A DNA stretch of 24,565 bases. It comes from a virus. Where the stretch lies: the IMG/VR virus record IMGVR_UViG_3300035698_006249, positions 1-24,565 of that record, one strand, 5' to 3'. Under the pieces are notes generated by a model, which searched no databases, was not told the origin of the DNA, and saw nothing but the letters and a program-made list of their open reading frames with translations. Both the position numbers and the translations under genes were made by a program. Within the stretch, counting starts at the first letter, position 1. Each line of letters begins with the position of its first letter. Of this stretch, positions 3,283 through 22,962 are shown in pieces.

Positions 3283-3576
3283 CTATTTTAGCAAATGATA
3301 ATCAATTTCATCATCATTCACAAGTTTATAACTAATGACATATCCTTCCGTAGATAATAATTTACCATATAATATAACCGAATTATCGTGTTTTATAGCG
3401 TGACCACCATAAACCATTTCAGGTATATAAATCCTACTATGACAATTTGGGCATAGTTCTATCAAATTAGATGTACTATCAACACCACCCATAGATTTCG
3501 GAATTATGTGGTGATAGTGTATCTGAGATTTATCTTTACACTCATAATCACAATCAGGCATTTGACACATATACAT
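3283..3576 (-). CDS. Small HNH endonuclease, probably a free-standing homing enzyme
   Basis: A 97-residue protein with a complete HNH core in its first half: Cys4 and Cys9 then Cys42 and Cys45 form the likely structural zinc site; HYHHIIPKSMGG holds the His pair (22-23), Asn37 is in SNLIELCPNC, and the final His is His46. HNH enzymes nick or cut DNA with one metal ion. Small phage HNH genes lying between replication genes are usually mobile. It sits between the gp41 C-part and the unknown gene before gp32 and has its own TATAAATA element about 30 bases upstream, which suggests late expression. GGGGTAG precedes the ATG at 3576. Nothing shows its target site. Confidence 0.88.
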   Translation of the reverse strand: MYMCQMPDCDYECKDKSQIHYHHIIPKSMGGVDSTSNLIELCPNCHSRIYIPEMVYGGHAIKHDNSVILYGKLLSTEGYVISYKLVNDDEIDYHLLK

Positions 3577-3604: not shown

Positions 3605-3612
3605 TATTTATA
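3605..3612 (-). promoter_or_regulatory. T4-type late promoter for the HNH gene
   Basis: TATAAATA on the minus strand (3612-3605), about 30 bases upstream of the HNH start, in the short gap after the gp41 C-part. This octamer is expected several times by chance in such AT-rich DNA, so position rather than sequence is the support. Confidence 0.45.
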
Positions 3613-3618
3613 CAAATA

Positions 3619-4893
3619 CTAATATTTAATTTCAGCCTTAGTTTTTTTAGGTGTAGATCTATTTATACGACGATTTTTAGGTGCTACCTTTCCACTTTTA
3701 GCGTTTTCGTTAACACTTCGTTTTTTCGTACTATCACTTGTAGGTGCAACCTTTTTAATGGTTGGTGCATCACTAGTAGTATCGTCTGTTTTATTATCAT
3801 AATCGTCAGTTAACCTCATCTTATTATAATTAACCCTAATATTAACACCCACCTGATTTTCACCATATCTATTTTTTATAATAACCCATCGATATTTACC
3901 TGAAGCTCTAAATTCATCAGGTTGTGTAACACCTATCATAATATCCGCAGTAAACGCTGTACCAATAGAATCTGATGTATTTGTTAAATCTAATTCATCT
4001 TTACCCATACCCAATCTATTAGTTTGAATAGCAGATACAATGGGTATTCCCGATTCTACTGCTAAACCACGAACATCCTCAGTTATTTTTTTTTGTATAG
4101 TATATGTGTTATCTGATTTATTGGTAAATGTCGAAGCCATAATACCTATATAATCAATATATATTATGTCGGGGATGAAGTTTTTCTTTAAATCCAATTC
4201 TTTTAACAAATTTCTGATATGATTAACTGATGCCGCACCAGTAGCATACTCTTTTATTATAAATTGACCTTTAAGCCTATCTCTAGCCCGCTGAAAACAT
4301 TCCCCGAATTTGTTTCTAGTTAATTTCTTTAACTCTTTACTACCAACATCAAAAGTATTAGAAATGACACGAACACCTATCTTGAATTCAGACATTTCGC
4401 ACGTAACATATAGAACTTTCTTACCTTGAAAAATATTATTCGTAGCAAGAGATCCCATAATAAGAGATTTTCCCATATTGGTGTTATGACTAACAATATC
4501 ATTTGTGTAATATCGATGGTTTTCATGATCAACTCTAATGTCAACGACATCTTCTAATTCATGTGTGTTTTCAACAATACACGATGAATATTCACCCATA
4601 TTGTTGAGAATCAAATGATCATCATTTAAATTATCTACTGATGCCCACCCATTATTGGTATACACCAAATGTTTCCCACTACATTTAAGTGTTTTATTAT
4701 TTGTTATTAATGTGTATATTTCCTTCTCACCCTTATTGACGAAATGGGTTACAGGGACGTACCCATCAGGAGAATCAACTTCTATCTCAAAATCATCTGA
4801 TAATAAAATATCCTCAACGTCACCAATAGGAATGTCAATATATTCCCATTCATCCAAATCTATATTAGCTTCTAATGAATTTAACACACTCAT
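3619..4893 (-). CDS. 41: C-intein fused to C-terminal part of replicative helicase gp41
   Basis: The 424-residue product begins with a 137-residue C-intein ending VSHN, followed by the helicase from Thr138. The extein opens with TNMGKS, the second half of a Walker A motif whose first half (VMAE) ends the N-extein at 5933. Walker B is IIYIDYIG (243-250), followed by the RecA/DnaB core with SAIQTNR. N-extein (194) plus C-extein (287) gives 481 residues against 475 for T4 gp41, so trans-splicing would give a full-size DnaB-like 5'-3' helicase. The last 60 or so residues are a Lys, Ser and Thr-rich basic tail. The ATG at 4893 is behind GAGGG, and the gene overlaps the end of the endonuclease gene by 29 bases, which suggests coupled translation. 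Confidence 0.92.
   Translation of the reverse strand: MSVLNSLEANIDLDEWEYIDIPIGDVEDILLSDDFEIEVDSPDGYVPVTHFVNKGEKEIYTLITNNKTLKCSGKHLVYTNNGWASVDNLNDDHLILNNMGEYSSCIVENTHELEDVVDIRVDHENHRYYTNDIVSHNTNMGKSLIMGSLATNNIFQGKKVLYVTCEMSEFKIGVRVISNTFDVGSKELKKLTRNKFGECFQRARDRLKGQFIIKEYATGAASVNHIRNLLKELDLKKNFIPDIIYIDYIGIMASTFTNKSDNTYTIQKKITEDVRGLAVESGIPIVSAIQTNRLGMGKDELDLTNTSDSIGTAFTADIMIGVTQPDEFRASGKYRWVIIKNRYGENQVGVNIRVNYNKMRLTDDYDNKTDDTTSDAPTIKKVAPTSDSTKKRSVNENAKSGKVAPKNRRINRSTPKKTKAEIKY
4483..4893 (-). other. C-intein of a split intein (137 residues)
   Basis: Block B is LKCSGKHLVY, with Ser72 and His75 in the place of the TxxH pair. Block F is DIRVDHENHRYY, with His126. Block G is VSHN, with the penultimate His136 and the terminal Asn137, followed by Thr as the +1 nucleophile. 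The N-terminal 45 residues are very acidic (Asp and Glu clusters in DLDEWEYIDIPIGDVED and LLSDDFEIEVD), opposite to the basic N-intein at 5861-5932. The intein totals 161 residues and has no endonuclease domain. Because the split is very close to the intein N-terminus, this belongs to the atypically split class, like the metagenomic VidaL and AceL inteins. Confidence 0.9.
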
Positions 4894-5815
4894 TTACAAC
4901 ACCCTCTTTATTATTTAAGAAATCTTTTTCCCATATAACCATAACAATATATCCCTGTTTTTCTGCACTACGAATTTTATTGCTATCTAATACCCATATA
5001 TCTTTAGCTTTTTTGTGGGTGACTGGGTGTACCCAAGCTTCATTATATATAATGGGGTTTGCGTGCCAGTAATCCCCATTAAACTCTATTATTTTATTTT
5101 CACACCACATATCATACAAATACACCTTTTTGTCATCATATATAGATAATAAAACTTTTTGTTGGGCTAAATCACATATATAATTTTGTATGCGACTAAA
5201 TAAGTCATTTTCCATATTAGAACTCAATACCCCATTAACTCTATTAGTCGTACACATCTGCCTAGCCCGAACTTTATCTAAAGCATCATCTATATAATAT
5301 CCTTTTTTTAGCCAATAACCTATCTGATTAGGCATTAACGAAAAATCTGATTGCTTTGTTATTCTAGAATTTTTTTGAGCCTTATCTTTAATAAAACACA
5401 CTTTATCCGATGCTTCCTGTTCTGAATACCCACGATTTATCCAAGTATCTTTGACTAACGGGCTTTGTCTATTAGGTCTCATATTTCTACTATACGATTC
5501 TTTTTGAGCCACACTAGTTGCATCACAATATTTATTATATAATATAGTTCCTACAGATTCACCATAAAATAATACATATGTATTTAAATCGTGAAACGAT
5601 TTTATGCGTGTATCCGACGACATATATACACAAATTTTATCATACAAATTATCCACACCATATTCAATCAATCTACTTATATGTGTCAATGCGTTCACAC
5701 TTTTTAGTACTTTAGGATACTTTTCTTCTATTTGTATAAGCACAGATACATTATTTTCTGTCAAATTCAAATGGTTAAACATTTTTCTTTCATATAACTT
5801 CATTTTTACAGGCAT
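4865..5815 (-). CDS. Vsr-like homing endonuclease in the fracture of gp41
   Basis: A 316-residue protein whose C-terminal domain has the PD-(D/E)xK-type fold signature of the Vsr/I-Bth0305I family: YLYDMWCE (Asp235), IIEFNGDYWHANP (Glu244, 242-254), WVLDSNK (274-280) and VMVIWEKDF (291-299). The middle (about 120-190) has two DNA-binding-like repeats, each with W, a Gly-Tyr step and a following helix (WINRGYSEQEA and WLKKGYYIDDA). It is not fused to the intein; it lies between the two halves of gp41 in the same direction, as reported for some fractured genes with split inteins. Homing would spread the interrupted locus. GAGGA lies 9-13 bases before the ATG at 5815, directly after an 18-bp hairpin containing a late promoter. 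The cleavage site is not known. Confidence 0.85.
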   Translation of the reverse strand: MPVKMKLYERKMFNHLNLTENNVSVLIQIEEKYPKVLKSVNALTHISRLIEYGVDNLYDKICVYMSSDTRIKSFHDLNTYVLFYGESVGTILYNKYCDATSVAQKESYSRNMRPNRQSPLVKDTWINRGYSEQEASDKVCFIKDKAQKNSRITKQSDFSLMPNQIGYWLKKGYYIDDALDKVRARQMCTTNRVNGVLSSNMENDLFSRIQNYICDLAQQKVLLSIYDDKKVYLYDMWCENKIIEFNGDYWHANPIIYNEAWVHPVTHKKAKDIWVLDSNKIRSAEKQGYIVMVIWEKDFLNNKEGVVNECVKFIRS

Positions 5816-5828
5816 ACATACCGTCCTC

Positions 5829-5873
5829 TTTGTTTCAGCTATAAATATTTATATAATTTATAGCTGAAACAAA
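5829..5873 (-). promoter_or_regulatory. 18-bp hairpin with late promoter at the gp41 fracture
   Basis: A perfect 18-bp inverted repeat (5829-5846 and 5856-5873) with a 9-base loop. In the minus-strand transcript the 5' arm encodes the last residues of the N-intein (LFQL) and its stop codon (5860-5858). TATAAATA (5853-5846) lies in the loop and the first base of the 3' arm. The 3' arm ends one base before GAGGA, the ribosome binding site of the endonuclease, and the stem can extend by pairing UCC with GGA across a two-base bulge. Read-through transcripts would hide that site; transcripts starting at the late promoter would lack the 5' arm. T4 genes 49, e, soc and I-TevI are controlled this way. 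Confidence 0.65.
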
Positions 5874-6514
5874 GGAATCATTTTATTTTTTCTTCTAACT
5901 CTAACTCTAACTTTGGTATCTTTAGTTACACATTCAGCCATCACCAAGGTAAGAGTCTTTTCGTGGAACCCACCCTCTATCAACTCATCTACAGTATCTA
6001 ATCCAGTAGAAACAACATAATCAGTATTATGTAGATGATCGTACATCATTTCTTCTGAGTCTGAATCAAATACATCTAATCCAACACTATCATCAAAAGA
6101 AAACGCCAACGCCTCCCTCATTTCGTCAGCCGAGTCACCTATTTGGTCCATTTCCTCATTAGACACTTTTTCAGCAACCTTAAAACACACATCCATAACA
6201 CACCGTTGACGGATGTACTCTTCTATCTCACCAAGTATTACTTCTGTGGTGTAATCCGAAGTATCGATTTTAAGAATTTCTTTTAAATGCTCATAAGCAT
6301 CAACATCAGGTATTTGGAGTCTAGTTTCCTTTACATTAGGAAATTTATTATATTTTGTCCTGAATTTTTTAATGAATTTTATTAGCGTAAGATTTTCGTC
6401 AATATCAAATATTGAGAATCTAAAGTAAGGGAGAACTTTATCCCTTACTTTATCATCTGTATATAAAAATTTCATGATAATATTTTCAAGCAAGTCCTGA
6501 CTATCATCAACCAT
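5858..6514 (-). CDS. 41: N-terminal part of replicative helicase gp41 fused to a short N-intein
   Basis: The 218-residue product is the N-terminal domain and linker of a DnaB-like hexameric helicase (residues 1-194) followed by a 24-residue N-intein. The extein ends LTLVMAE, just before the P-loop; the C-extein continues with TNMGKS, giving AETNMGKS after splicing. STGLDTVDELIEGGFHEKTL is the typical stretch before Walker A in DnaB and gp41 proteins. Alone this polypeptide has no ATPase core and should be inactive. The ATG at 6514 has AAGGTG upstream and follows uvsX by 14 bases. The primase gp61 is the expected partner of the spliced helicase. Confidence 0.9.
   Translation of the reverse strand: MVDDSQDLLENIIMKFLYTDDKVRDKVLPYFRFSIFDIDENLTLIKFIKKFRTKYNKFPNVKETRLQIPDVDAYEHLKEILKIDTSDYTTEVILGEIEEYIRQRCVMDVCFKVAEKVSNEEMDQIGDSADEMREALAFSFDDSVGLDVFDSDSEEMMYDHLHNTDYVVSTGLDTVDELIEGGFHEKTLTLVMAECVTKDTKVRVRVRRKNKMIPLFQL
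5861..5932 (-). other. N-intein of a split intein (24 residues)
   Basis: The segment starts with the Cys1 nucleophile and block A (CVTKDTKVRV) and stops 24 residues later after PLFQL. It carries eight Lys or Arg and a single Asp, complementary to the acidic start of the C-intein, as is known for split inteins that assemble by charge. Classical split inteins have N-parts of about 90-100 residues; this one is split within the first strands, before block B, which is found in the C-part. Confidence 0.88.
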
Positions 6515-19744: not shown

Positions 19745-20191
19745 ATGGAAATTAATGAAAAATTATTTGAAAATATAATTGTTATGGGTTCTTCTGGTGA
19801 ATCCGATATTTTTGATCAAATAGAAGATCAGGAAAAGAAAATTGCTGAGAATAAAGATTTATATGACGCATTTTCTAAAATTACTAAAGTATTAGAATCA
19901 CCTAGTACATATAATGAAATACAGTCTGTAGCACCATCATTGGATGTTAATAATGGTACTATTACAGTTAATGGTGTGTGTAAACATTCAGTTAAAGCGT
20001 GTTCCTCAGATATGGGTATTGTTGATGGTGATGACACATCTAGTGGTGATGTCGAAAATATCATAACGTCGTATGTTAAAGATCTTACAGGGGCATTACC
20101 TGATGGGTTAAAATTAACCCACGAGATTTTTGATGATGAAACACCAGCTTTAGATAAGAAGAAATTCTTAATAATTATTAGTCGAAAATAA
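19745..20191 (+). CDS. Unknown late protein, first gene of the virion block
   Basis: A 148-residue protein that I do not recognise. It starts at an ATG behind ATAGGAG, just downstream of the terminator and late promoter. It has a charged, helical N-terminal half (IEDQEKKIAENKDLYDAF), a Ser/Gly/Asp-rich middle around 65-100, and a basic end (KKKFLIIISRK). No signal peptide or membrane segment is seen. The late promoter and the downstream structural-looking genes suggest a virion or assembly protein. Confidence 0.75.
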   Translation: MEINEKLFENIIVMGSSGESDIFDQIEDQEKKIAENKDLYDAFSKITKVLESPSTYNEIQSVAPSLDVNNGTITVNGVCKHSVKACSSDMGIVDGDDTSSGDVENIITSYVKDLTGALPDGLKLTHEIFDDETPALDKKKFLIIISRK

Positions 20192-22158: not shown

Positions 22159-22228
22159 GATGGCTATGATTAATTTCATAGCCATCTTAAAAAGATTCAT
22201 TATATGTGGGTCTTTTTAAGATGGCTAT
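22159..22228 (+). promoter_or_regulatory. Three-armed inverted repeat, possible RNA switch before the neck gene
   Basis: Two perfect but mutually exclusive stems are possible. Stem 1 pairs 22159-22169 with 22176-22186 (GATGGCTATGA, 11 bp, 6-base loop). Stem 2 pairs 22178-22195 with 22211-22228 (18 bp, 15-base loop). They compete for bases 22178-22186. The ribosome binding site of the next gene (AGAGG, 22233-22237) lies five bases after stem 2. Neither stem has a T tract after it on the plus strand, so translation control or RNA processing is more likely than simple termination. Confidence 0.5.
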
Positions 22229-22242
22229 ATAAAGAGGATGAA

Positions 22243-22962
22243 ATGATAATAAATCACACGACAACGTATATTGATGTTGGTACAGCGTTAACGCACACAA
22301 TATCAACTAAGGATGAATATGATTATTTACAATATTCTGCGTCCTCAGATAATACAACTAATATATGTTCAACGTCATATGATCCTGATAGAGAATTAGC
22401 ATCTATGCTAAATATGGAGATTTGGAATTCTTTTGGTGTAGAATTAACATATTATGGTACTACATATGATACATCATATGATAAGATATTCGGGGAAGAT
22501 GGTAATAGGGTTGTTAATTCATCTTGGAACATAATGTCTTATTTTCCTTTACCTAAAGAAAATAAGATTTGGGGTGAATTTGGTATTGAGGGTGTTAACG
22601 ATTTTTCTATGTATGTATCAAAAGAGCATTTTAGATATAGCACGAGTGGGTACATTCCTAAAATGGGGGATTTGGTTATATCGTTATATGATCAAAAATT
22701 ATATGAAATATTAGAAATAAAAGAAGAAGCCCCATTATTTTTACTTTCTAAACAATATGCTTGGGAGTTTATTGTACGTAAAGCTAAAATTGAACAAGAT
22801 ATTAGTGTTTCTCCTACACTATCAGCATCATCTATAACAAAATATTATAATGTTTCTGATATATTTAATATTGATGATCAAATAGATATAGAAAAAGAAA
22901 ATATTTTATATGAACCTGATACGACGGAAACTCCTGTGAATGATCCTTTTGGTACTTGGTGA
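22243..22962 (+). CDS. 14: Neck protein, T4 gp14-like, first copy
   Basis: T4 gp14 joins the head to the tail at the neck. This 239-residue protein (T4: 256) matches in pattern: TYYGTTYDTSYDKIFGED for the YYVPREYVSPDLIFGED line of T4, then WNIMSYFPLPKENKIWGEFG for the AYLN to FSNFG region, MGDLVISLYDQKLYEILEIK for [20 protein letters not shown]. The end, DIFNIDDQIDIEKEN and NDPFGTW, recurs in the next gene. The ATG at 22243 is behind AGAGG; an upstream in-frame ATG at 22204 lies inside the RNA structure and has no ribosome binding site. Together with 22975-23637 it forms a tandem paralogue pair. Confidence 0.8.
   Translation: MIINHTTTYIDVGTALTHTISTKDEYDYLQYSASSDNTTNICSTSYDPDRELASMLNMEIWNSFGVELTYYGTTYDTSYDKIFGEDGNRVVNSSWNIMSYFPLPKENKIWGEFGIEGVNDFSMYVSKEHFRYSTSGYIPKMGDLVISLYDQKLYEILEIKEEAPLFLLSKQYAWEFIVRKAKIEQDISVSPTLSASSITKYYNVSDIFNIDDQIDIEKENILYEPDTTETPVNDPFGTW

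What the first reader, a model, noticed from the sequence alone, without database searches (positions are those of the whole stretch)
3619..6514. gp41 helicase gene fractured by an atypical split intein with a homing endonuclease in the break
The sequence shows a helicase N-part ending VMAE, then Cys and a 24-residue basic N-intein; and, 965 bases further along the transcript, an acidic 137-residue C-intein ending VSHN followed by TNMGKS. The joined extein rebuilds a Walker A motif and a 481-residue gp41. The split lies before block B, as in the few known atypically split inteins (VidaL, AceL). Fractured genes with a Vsr-like homing endonuclease between the parts are a known arrangement from metagenomic data; here it is seen in full genomic and regulatory context. 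The helicase should be active only after trans-splicing of two polypeptides.
Basis: partly seen in the sequence, partly recalled or inferred. Interest (0 to 1): 0.9.

Follow-up and report, generated by a model that had tools for sequence, protein, structure and literature searches.

The report
Split-intein helicase gene with endonuclease insert
A phage's essential DNA-unwinding helicase is encoded in two pieces that must be stitched together as proteins, with a selfish DNA-cutting gene sitting in the gap; relatives show that such breaks have closed up again into one gene in several lineages as the cutter was lost.

Summary
gp41 is fractured at its Walker A motif: N-part 5858-6514(-) ends VMAE|C1 plus a 24-aa basic N-intein; a 316-aa I-Bth0305I/Vsr-like homing endonuclease (HEN) follows at 4865-5815(-); C-part 3619-4893(-) begins with a 137-aa C-intein ending VSHN|TNMGKS. 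Relatives with 52-72% identical exteins carry the uninterrupted MAETNMGKS at exactly this point. The C-intein's best solved match is VidaL. So this is a new member of a known kind: an atypically split intein in a HEN-bearing fractured gene.

(1) The HEN has a predicted I-TevI-like switch: a perfect 19-bp hairpin over the N-part stop codon sequesters the HEN Shine-Dalgarno in read-through RNA, and a TATAAATA late promoter inside it would start RNA that cannot fold. (2) At this site the family holds empty, contiguous, split+HNH (antisense, own late promoter in 33/36), split+Vsr and split-without-HEN forms. Contiguous and split forms interchange at least 10-11 times on the tree. Relics of HEN-promoter or HEN-end sequence inside contiguous inteins indicate healing from the split form in at least two lineages, including the window's own clade.

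Splicing, cleavage and the switch are untested.

The parts
5933..6514 (-). gp41 helicase N-extein, 194 aa, ending ...VMAE
   Evidence: phrog_19 DnaB-like replicative helicase E 2.4e-16; 52-72% identity to the N half of uninterrupted relatives L002-L009
5861..5932 (-). N-intein, 24 aa, CVTKDTKVRVRVRRKNKMIPLFQL; stop codon 5858-5860
   Evidence: reading frame; homologous to CVTKDTK.KIRIRK N-inteins of L058, L147, L149, L150 and CVHPDTKV.IR.RK of about 70 others
5828..5874 (-). perfect 19-bp hairpin covering the last N-intein codons, the stop codon and part of the HEN Shine-Dalgarno
   Evidence: longest perfect inverted repeat within 60 nt in the window; RNA fold -28.3 kcal/mol, z -6.9, with UCC/GGA extension pairing the SD; a transcript starting at 5842 folds at only -2.7
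5846..5853 (-). TATAAATA, T4-type late-promoter motif inside the hairpin, 38 nt upstream of the HEN ATG
   Evidence: L099 (another split gp41 with a HEN of the same cluster) has it at the same -38 offset; in the window, TATAAATA lies 25-60 nt upstream of 4 gene starts against 0.3 expected
5824..5831 (-). Shine-Dalgarno AAAGAGGA of the HEN, 8 nt before ATG
   Evidence: sequence; paired in the long transcript, free in the late one
4865..5815 (-). homing endonuclease ORF, 316 aa; C-terminal Vsr/I-Bth0305I-like nuclease domain (invariant D235, E244, H251, D277, E296)
   Evidence: same-cluster HENs in split gp41 (L058, L099) and relatives in split terL loci (L048-L055)
4902..4907 (-). Shine-Dalgarno AGAGGG of the C-part, lying in the last codons of the HEN
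   Evidence: sequence; the corresponding stretch is retained in L147 after loss of most of the HEN
4483..4893 (-). C-intein, 137 aa, ending VSHN; overlaps the HEN 3' end by 29 nt
   Evidence: VidaL 6vgv E 2e-12; AlphaFold model pLDDT 81, TM 0.76 to 6vgv; catalytic residues conserved in 36 aligned C-inteins
3622..4482 (-). gp41 helicase C-extein, 287 aa, starting TNMGKS (Walker A)
   Evidence: DnaB_C E 1.5e-17; phrog_19 E 2e-55; 56-68% identity to intact relatives

Best explanation
This is a mobile element made of an atypically split (S1-site) class 1 intein plus a Vsr-like homing endonuclease, inserted at the codons for the Walker A motif of the phage replicative helicase gp41. Both helicase parts are read from the gp41 transcript: the N-part from its own start, the C-part from a Shine-Dalgarno embedded in the HEN's last codons. 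The basic 24-aa N-intein docks on the acidic 137-aa C-intein and they trans-splice (Cys1, Asn137, Thr+1) into a 481-aa helicase. The HEN is silent on such read-through RNA because a 19-bp hairpin seals its Shine-Dalgarno. Late in infection a TATAAATA promoter inside the hairpin would start an RNA that lacks the 5' arm, so the HEN is made and cuts intein-free gp41 copies. The break is the HEN's seat: when the HEN is lost, related elements persist as HEN-free splits or heal into contiguous mini-inteins. Shown here: anatomy, homology, exact empty site, family-wide states, relics. Inferred: splicing, cleavage, late transcription, translational block.
For: Exact empty site in eight relatives. VidaL-like C-intein by sequence and fold. 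Catalytic residues conserved. HEN fold matches I-Bth0305I and Vsr. Same layout with a HEN of the same cluster in L058 and L099, and a HEN end overlapping the C-part start in the L151 fragment. Hairpin and late promoter, matching the documented I-TevI/segB/Aeh1-mobE switch (PMC2988022). Tree of 66 loci: 11 changes between contiguous and split, 10 forced by supported branches. Healing relics: L119 carries the antisense HEN-promoter sequence of its split sister L092 as codons; L150 carries VLNSS, resembling the leader of the split C-part; L147 keeps about 50 codons of a truncated HEN of the same family.
Against: No splicing, cleavage or transcription data. The N-intein carries a tail absent from most relatives. 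TATAAATA is an A+T-rich 8-mer only mildly enriched in the window (17 against 11.5 expected). Whole-model Foldseek E-values for the HEN are weak and its N-terminal two thirds are modelled poorly. The hairpin is not conserved in L058 or L105, so the switch is not a general feature of this HEN type.
Confidence: 0.86

Rival explanations
1. The helicase halves work by non-covalent assembly, as in phage Aeh1 NrdA split by mobE, and the intein halves are decayed.
For: HEN insertions that split genes without splicing are documented (PMC2988022).
Against: All catalytic intein residues are kept and conserved across 36 homologues; the break runs through the Walker A loop; the exteins join without loss or gain relative to intact relatives.
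Confidence: 0.04
2. The 965-nt gap is an RNA intron carrying the HEN, removed at RNA level, so that a contiguous intein is translated.
For: HENs often sit in phage introns.
Against: No group I or group II intron found by Rfam at E up to 1; the C-part has its own start codon and Shine-Dalgarno; related gaps are as short as 16 nt and others carry unrelated, oppositely oriented HENs.
Confidence: 0.02
3. The direction is the textbook one only: contiguous inteins were fractured many times independently by HEN insertion at one place, with no healing.
For: Natural split inteins are held to come from contiguous ones (PMC12707363, PMC11766414); change counts on an unrooted tree give no direction.
Against: Relics in contiguous L119 (HEN late-promoter sequence) and L150 (split C-part leader), HEN-promoter relics in HEN-free splits L077, L107 and L123, and a truncated HEN in L147. 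No contiguous member carries a HEN.
Confidence: 0.15
4. The hairpin is only a transcript-stabilising or processing structure, and TATAAATA in it is chance.
For: A second perfect 18-bp hairpin stands before an unrelated structural-region gene (22178-22228) without TATAAATA.
Against: The stem extends to pair the HEN Shine-Dalgarno itself, and the late-promoter offset (-38) recurs in L099.
Confidence: 0.25

Closest known systems
VidaL intein (PDB 6vgv), from phage UvsX
   Same: Atypical split with a short N-intein (16 aa CLPKEAVVQIRLTKKG in loci L159/L161), long C-intein, insertion in a Walker A loop, Vsr-like HEN in the break of L159; best sequence and fold match
   Different: Host protein UvsX, +1 Ser, N-intein sequence; L161 lacks the HEN
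Fractured genes with split inteins and Vsr-like HENs (Dassa et al. 2009; paper not held, from own knowledge)
   Same: Gene broken inside an intein, Vsr-like HEN ORF in the gap
   Different: The gp41-1, gp41-8, NrdJ-1 and IMPDH-1 examples are split at the canonical site (S2 in PMC7090010), giving a long N-intein; here the split is near the N terminus
AceL-TerL and GOS-TerL atypically split inteins
   Same: Short N-intein of 25 and 37 aa (PMC11766414), phage gene host; terL loci L048-L055 here show the same layout with a related HEN
   Different: Terminase host; GOS-TerL uses Ser1/Cys+1
PolB16 OarG intein (PMC10189870)
   Same: Atypical split, 15-aa N-intein
   Different: Ser1/Ser+1, DNA polymerase host, block-B His dispensable
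I-TevI / segB / Aeh1 mobE regulation
   Same: Hairpin hiding the HEN ribosome site on long RNAs, late promoter placed so that late RNA escapes (PMC2988022)
   Different: Those HENs lie in group I introns or stand free; this one lies in the break of a split intein
Vibrio phage vB_VmeM-32 (KU160494), cultured Straboviridae
   Same: gp41 fractured within Walker A by intein halves with a 378-aa HEN-like ORF between; the two gp41 parts are not annotated
   Different: Insertion three residues further on (AGVN^TGKS); different intein lineage

Membership tests
Inteins (class 1) | Hint-fold splicing domain with Cys/Ser1, block-B His, penultimate His, C-terminal Asn, Cys/Ser/Thr+1 | tested here: met
   Cys1, His75, His136, Asn137, Thr138; Hint fold of the C-intein model
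Inteins (class 1) | Exteins join into an intact known host protein | tested here: met
   Joined 481-aa helicase matches intact relatives with no residue lost or gained at the junction
Inteins (class 1) | Splicing activity | not testable with these tools
   needs expression and mass spectrometry
Atypically split inteins (S1 split) | N-intein of about 15-40 aa, C-intein carrying blocks B, F and G, on separate ORFs | tested here: met
   24 aa and 137 aa on separate ORFs 965 nt apart
Fractured genes (Dassa type) | Free-standing Vsr-like HEN ORF between the intein halves | tested here: met
   ORF 4865-5815; fold match to I-Bth0305I and Vsr; cluster with L058 and L099
I-Bth0305I / Vsr-like homing endonucleases | Vsr-like nuclease core with conserved acidic and His residues | tested here: met
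   D235, E244, H251, D277, E296 invariant in 10 sequences; Foldseek probability 0.99 but E 0.1
I-Bth0305I / Vsr-like homing endonucleases | Cuts the intein-free allele | not testable with these tools
   needs a cleavage assay
I-TevI-type HEN regulation | RNA structure pairing the HEN Shine-Dalgarno in upstream transcripts | tested here: met
   predicted fold -28.3 kcal/mol, z -6.9; prediction only
I-TevI-type HEN regulation | Late promoter placed so that late RNA lacks the structure | tested here: inconclusive
   exact TATAAATA in the hairpin, short RNA does not fold; start site not mapped
Group I/II intron | Covariance-model match | tested here: not met
   none at E up to 1

The most novel reading that the evidence does not exclude
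In this intein lineage the split is not a one-way accident but the seat of the mobile endonuclease: the HEN lives only in the gap between the halves, exchanges with unrelated HENs in either orientation (many with their own late promoter or an RNA switch), and when it is lost the break repeatedly heals into a contiguous mini-intein. Split and contiguous inteins would then be interchangeable stages of one homing cycle.
Probability: 0.65. Interest if true: 0.8.

Novelty: new member of a known kind. Interest (0 to 1): 0.62.

Why it matters
How natural split inteins arise and why they persist is usually answered by 'a contiguous intein was broken by a homing endonuclease'. Here one insertion site in one gene shows empty, split with two kinds of HEN, split without HEN, and contiguous alleles, including a natural pair 92% identical in DNA that differs by the break (L019/L022) and contiguous inteins carrying relics of the break. 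That makes gain, HEN exchange, HEN loss and healing directly testable. The window adds a concrete hypothesis for how an essential early gene tolerates a HEN in its middle: an RNA switch that keeps the HEN off until late. The family also yields dozens of very short natural N-inteins (about 16-24 aa), useful for protein semisynthesis.

Tried and rejected
RNA intron: Rfam search negative. Pfam and NCBIfam do not recognise the HEN, and see the intein halves at best below threshold; the VhuA and P35-antigen hits of the HEN were discarded as chance. The full alignment including L105 (A3) was too poor for modelling and was replaced by A4. Bacterial and archaeal genomes: 23 pattern matches, no relative of the intein. 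Hairpin plus late promoter as a general rule for sense HENs: rejected, absent in L058 and L105; terL HENs often have other hairpins at or near the start codon. The VidaL structure as a helicase (T4Lh) intein: rejected, its gene is uvsX. The founding paper on fractured genes is not held, and VidaL T4Lh-1 could not be found in the library. A first tree without a mixture model was repeated with the careful method, same counts.
Full report
OBSERVATION. Three ORFs on the minus strand account for the finding. The N-part (5858-6514, 218 aa) ends VMAE|CVTKDTKVRVRVRRKNKMIPLFQL*. The middle ORF is 4865-5815 (316 aa). The C-part (3619-4893, 424 aa) begins with 137 aa ending VSHN and continues TNMGKS. The N-intein has 8 basic and 1 acidic residue, the C-intein 7 basic and 29 acidic. 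The flanks match T4-type helicase: phrog_19 E 2.4e-16 and 2e-55, DnaB_C 1.5e-17.

EMPTY SITE. Eight viral contigs with 52-72% identical halves encode an unbroken helicase with MAE|TNMGKS. At DNA level the window's 45 nt before Cys1 and 45 nt after Asn137 join in the same codon register as these relatives. The insert is therefore exactly 1450 bp, and the two halves rebuild a 481-aa protein.

THE INTEIN. The C-intein's best solved relative by sequence is VidaL (6vgv, E 2e-12). An AlphaFold model from 36 homologues (pLDDT 81) matches 6vgv best (E 1.2e-8, TM 0.76, 1.6 A) and many other inteins. Invariant or nearly invariant positions include His75, Asp118, His126, His136, Asn137 and Thr138. The split lies before block B. 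The gene that encodes VidaL was found in four viral contigs and is uvsX, split after 16 aa; L159 carries a Vsr-like HEN in the gap and L161 does not.

THE ENDONUCLEASE. Pfam does not recognise it. Its relatives lie in breaks of gp41 (L058, L099) and of terL (L048-L055). The C-terminal domain is modelled well (blocks at pLDDT 83-90) and matches the I-Bth0305I catalytic domain (probability 0.99) and Vsr (0.97), although E-values for the whole model are only 0.1-0.3.

REGULATION. A perfect 19-bp inverted repeat (5828-5874), the longest perfect one in the window at this spacing, begins in the last N-intein codons, includes the N-part stop codon and ends in the HEN Shine-Dalgarno. In an RNA running through the N-part, the stem extends so that UCC pairs with the GGA of the Shine-Dalgarno (-28.3 kcal/mol, z -6.9). 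TATAAATA lies inside the hairpin, 38 nt before the HEN start. An RNA starting at 5842, a few bases past the motif, does not fold (-2.7). The review of T4 mobile elements describes precisely this for I-TevI, with similar arrangements for I-TevII, I-TevIII, segB and Aeh1 mobE (PMC2988022). TATAAATA as such is common (17 in the window, 11.5 expected), but it stands 25-60 nt before four gene starts against 0.3 expected (circular-shift p 0.0015): this HEN, the free-standing HNH ORF 3283-3576, and the genes at 19745 and 23698. L099 has the motif at the same -38 offset. The C-part has its own Shine-Dalgarno (4902-4907) inside the HEN's last codons, so helicase synthesis need not depend on HEN translation (inference).

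THE FAMILY. Two profile scans brought the set to 158 sequences including the window. At this one site the records hold 78 split, 29 contiguous and 24 empty alleles, plus 14 with only the C-part visible (redundant records). After removal of duplicates, 70 sequences remained: 36 split with an HNH HEN, 18 contiguous, 8 split with short gaps (16-198 nt in the redundant listing) and no intact HEN, 8 split with a Vsr-like HEN. In the redundant listing the HNH HEN is antisense to gp41 in all but one of the records displayed. No contiguous member carries a HEN. An exact antisense TATAAATA lies within 48 nt before the C-part start in 33 of 36 HNH breaks, against 0.002-0.007 expected per 60 bp: these HENs appear to have their own late promoter. 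Relatedness inflates the count, but the position varies from 13 to 47 nt.

REVERSIBILITY. On a tree of 66 loci (IQ-TREE, mixture model) contiguous and split forms change 11 times (11-11 in bootstraps; 10 forced by supported branches), in agreement with the first tree. Counts alone give no direction. Direction comes from relics. (a) Contiguous L119 encodes RFR-YLYKNM-HNYTK-WEEK; its DNA TATTTATATAAAAA-TATG is the sequence that in its split sister L092 is the HEN's antisense late promoter plus the C-part start. (b) In the window's own clade, contiguous L150 reads R-VLNSS-..-W, and VLNS/VENSS is the leader of the split C-parts of the window and L151, a leader that overlaps the HEN's last codons. 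The match is only 11 identical nt, so this is weaker than (a). (c) L147, also in this clade, is split, has lost most of its HEN and keeps about 50 terminal codons (...IWKIDQIKVETAILQGYEVMIVWENDFLQNKEGVLNECYEFIKK*) next to the C-part's ribosome site. (d) HEN-free splits L077, L107 and L123 keep the antisense promoter motif. Natural pairs differing by the break include L019/L022 (92% DNA identity over 4.4 kb) and L102/L105. The library's statements are one-way: split inteins from contiguous ones (PMC12707363, PMC11766414). I found no report of healing, but most of the intein literature is not held.

ALTERNATIVES. An intron is excluded at the level of Rfam. Non-covalent assembly is unlikely, as the break cuts the Walker A loop and the intein residues are kept. 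An assembly artefact is unlikely because the same break occurs in independent contigs, and a break three residues further on in the cultured Vibrio phage vB_VmeM-32.

VERDICT. The locus is an ordinary but complete member of a known kind. The interest lies in the RNA switch (predicted) and in the family-wide evidence that splitting is reversible and tied to the presence of the endonuclease.

Noticed in passing
window 3283-3576 (-), motif 3605-3612: A 97-aa HNH ORF directly after gp41 has an exact TATAAATA 36 nt upstream: probably a second, free-standing late-expressed HEN.
   Followed up: partly
window 22178-22228: A second perfect 18-bp hairpin stands just before a gene start (ATG near 22243) with Shine-Dalgarno AAAGAGGA left free, as described for seg43(25).
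   Followed up: no
L158 (Vibrio phage vB_VmeM-32, KU160494): A cultured Straboviridae phage has gp41 fractured within Walker A (halves unannotated, 378-aa HEN between), uvsX fractured around a SegG-like HEN, and an intein-like match in terL: a tractable system for testing.
   Followed up: partly
L051 3284-7145: A terL with three inteins in a row: one split with a Vsr-like HEN and two contiguous further down; L053 and L054 have two.
   Followed up: no
L017 5060-5275; L046 4100-5470: A second intein in the same helicase downstream (after TRSGF in L017, LNR in L046), split near the canonical site; in L046 with a Vsr-like HEN in that break too.
   Followed up: no
L048, L049, L051, L055 at the HEN start: Hairpins overlapping the HEN start codon (e.g. 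ATAGATGAGCTGAGAGCTTATCTATG in L049), suggesting RNA control of HENs in split terL as well.
   Followed up: partly
L159 and L161: The VidaL (uvsX) intein occurs with a 373-aa Vsr-like HEN in the break (L159) and with a 58-nt gap and no HEN (L161).
   Followed up: partly
L110 2863-3300, L135 2783-3265: Split gp41 gaps that hold an extra unrelated ORF beside the antisense HNH HEN.
   Followed up: no
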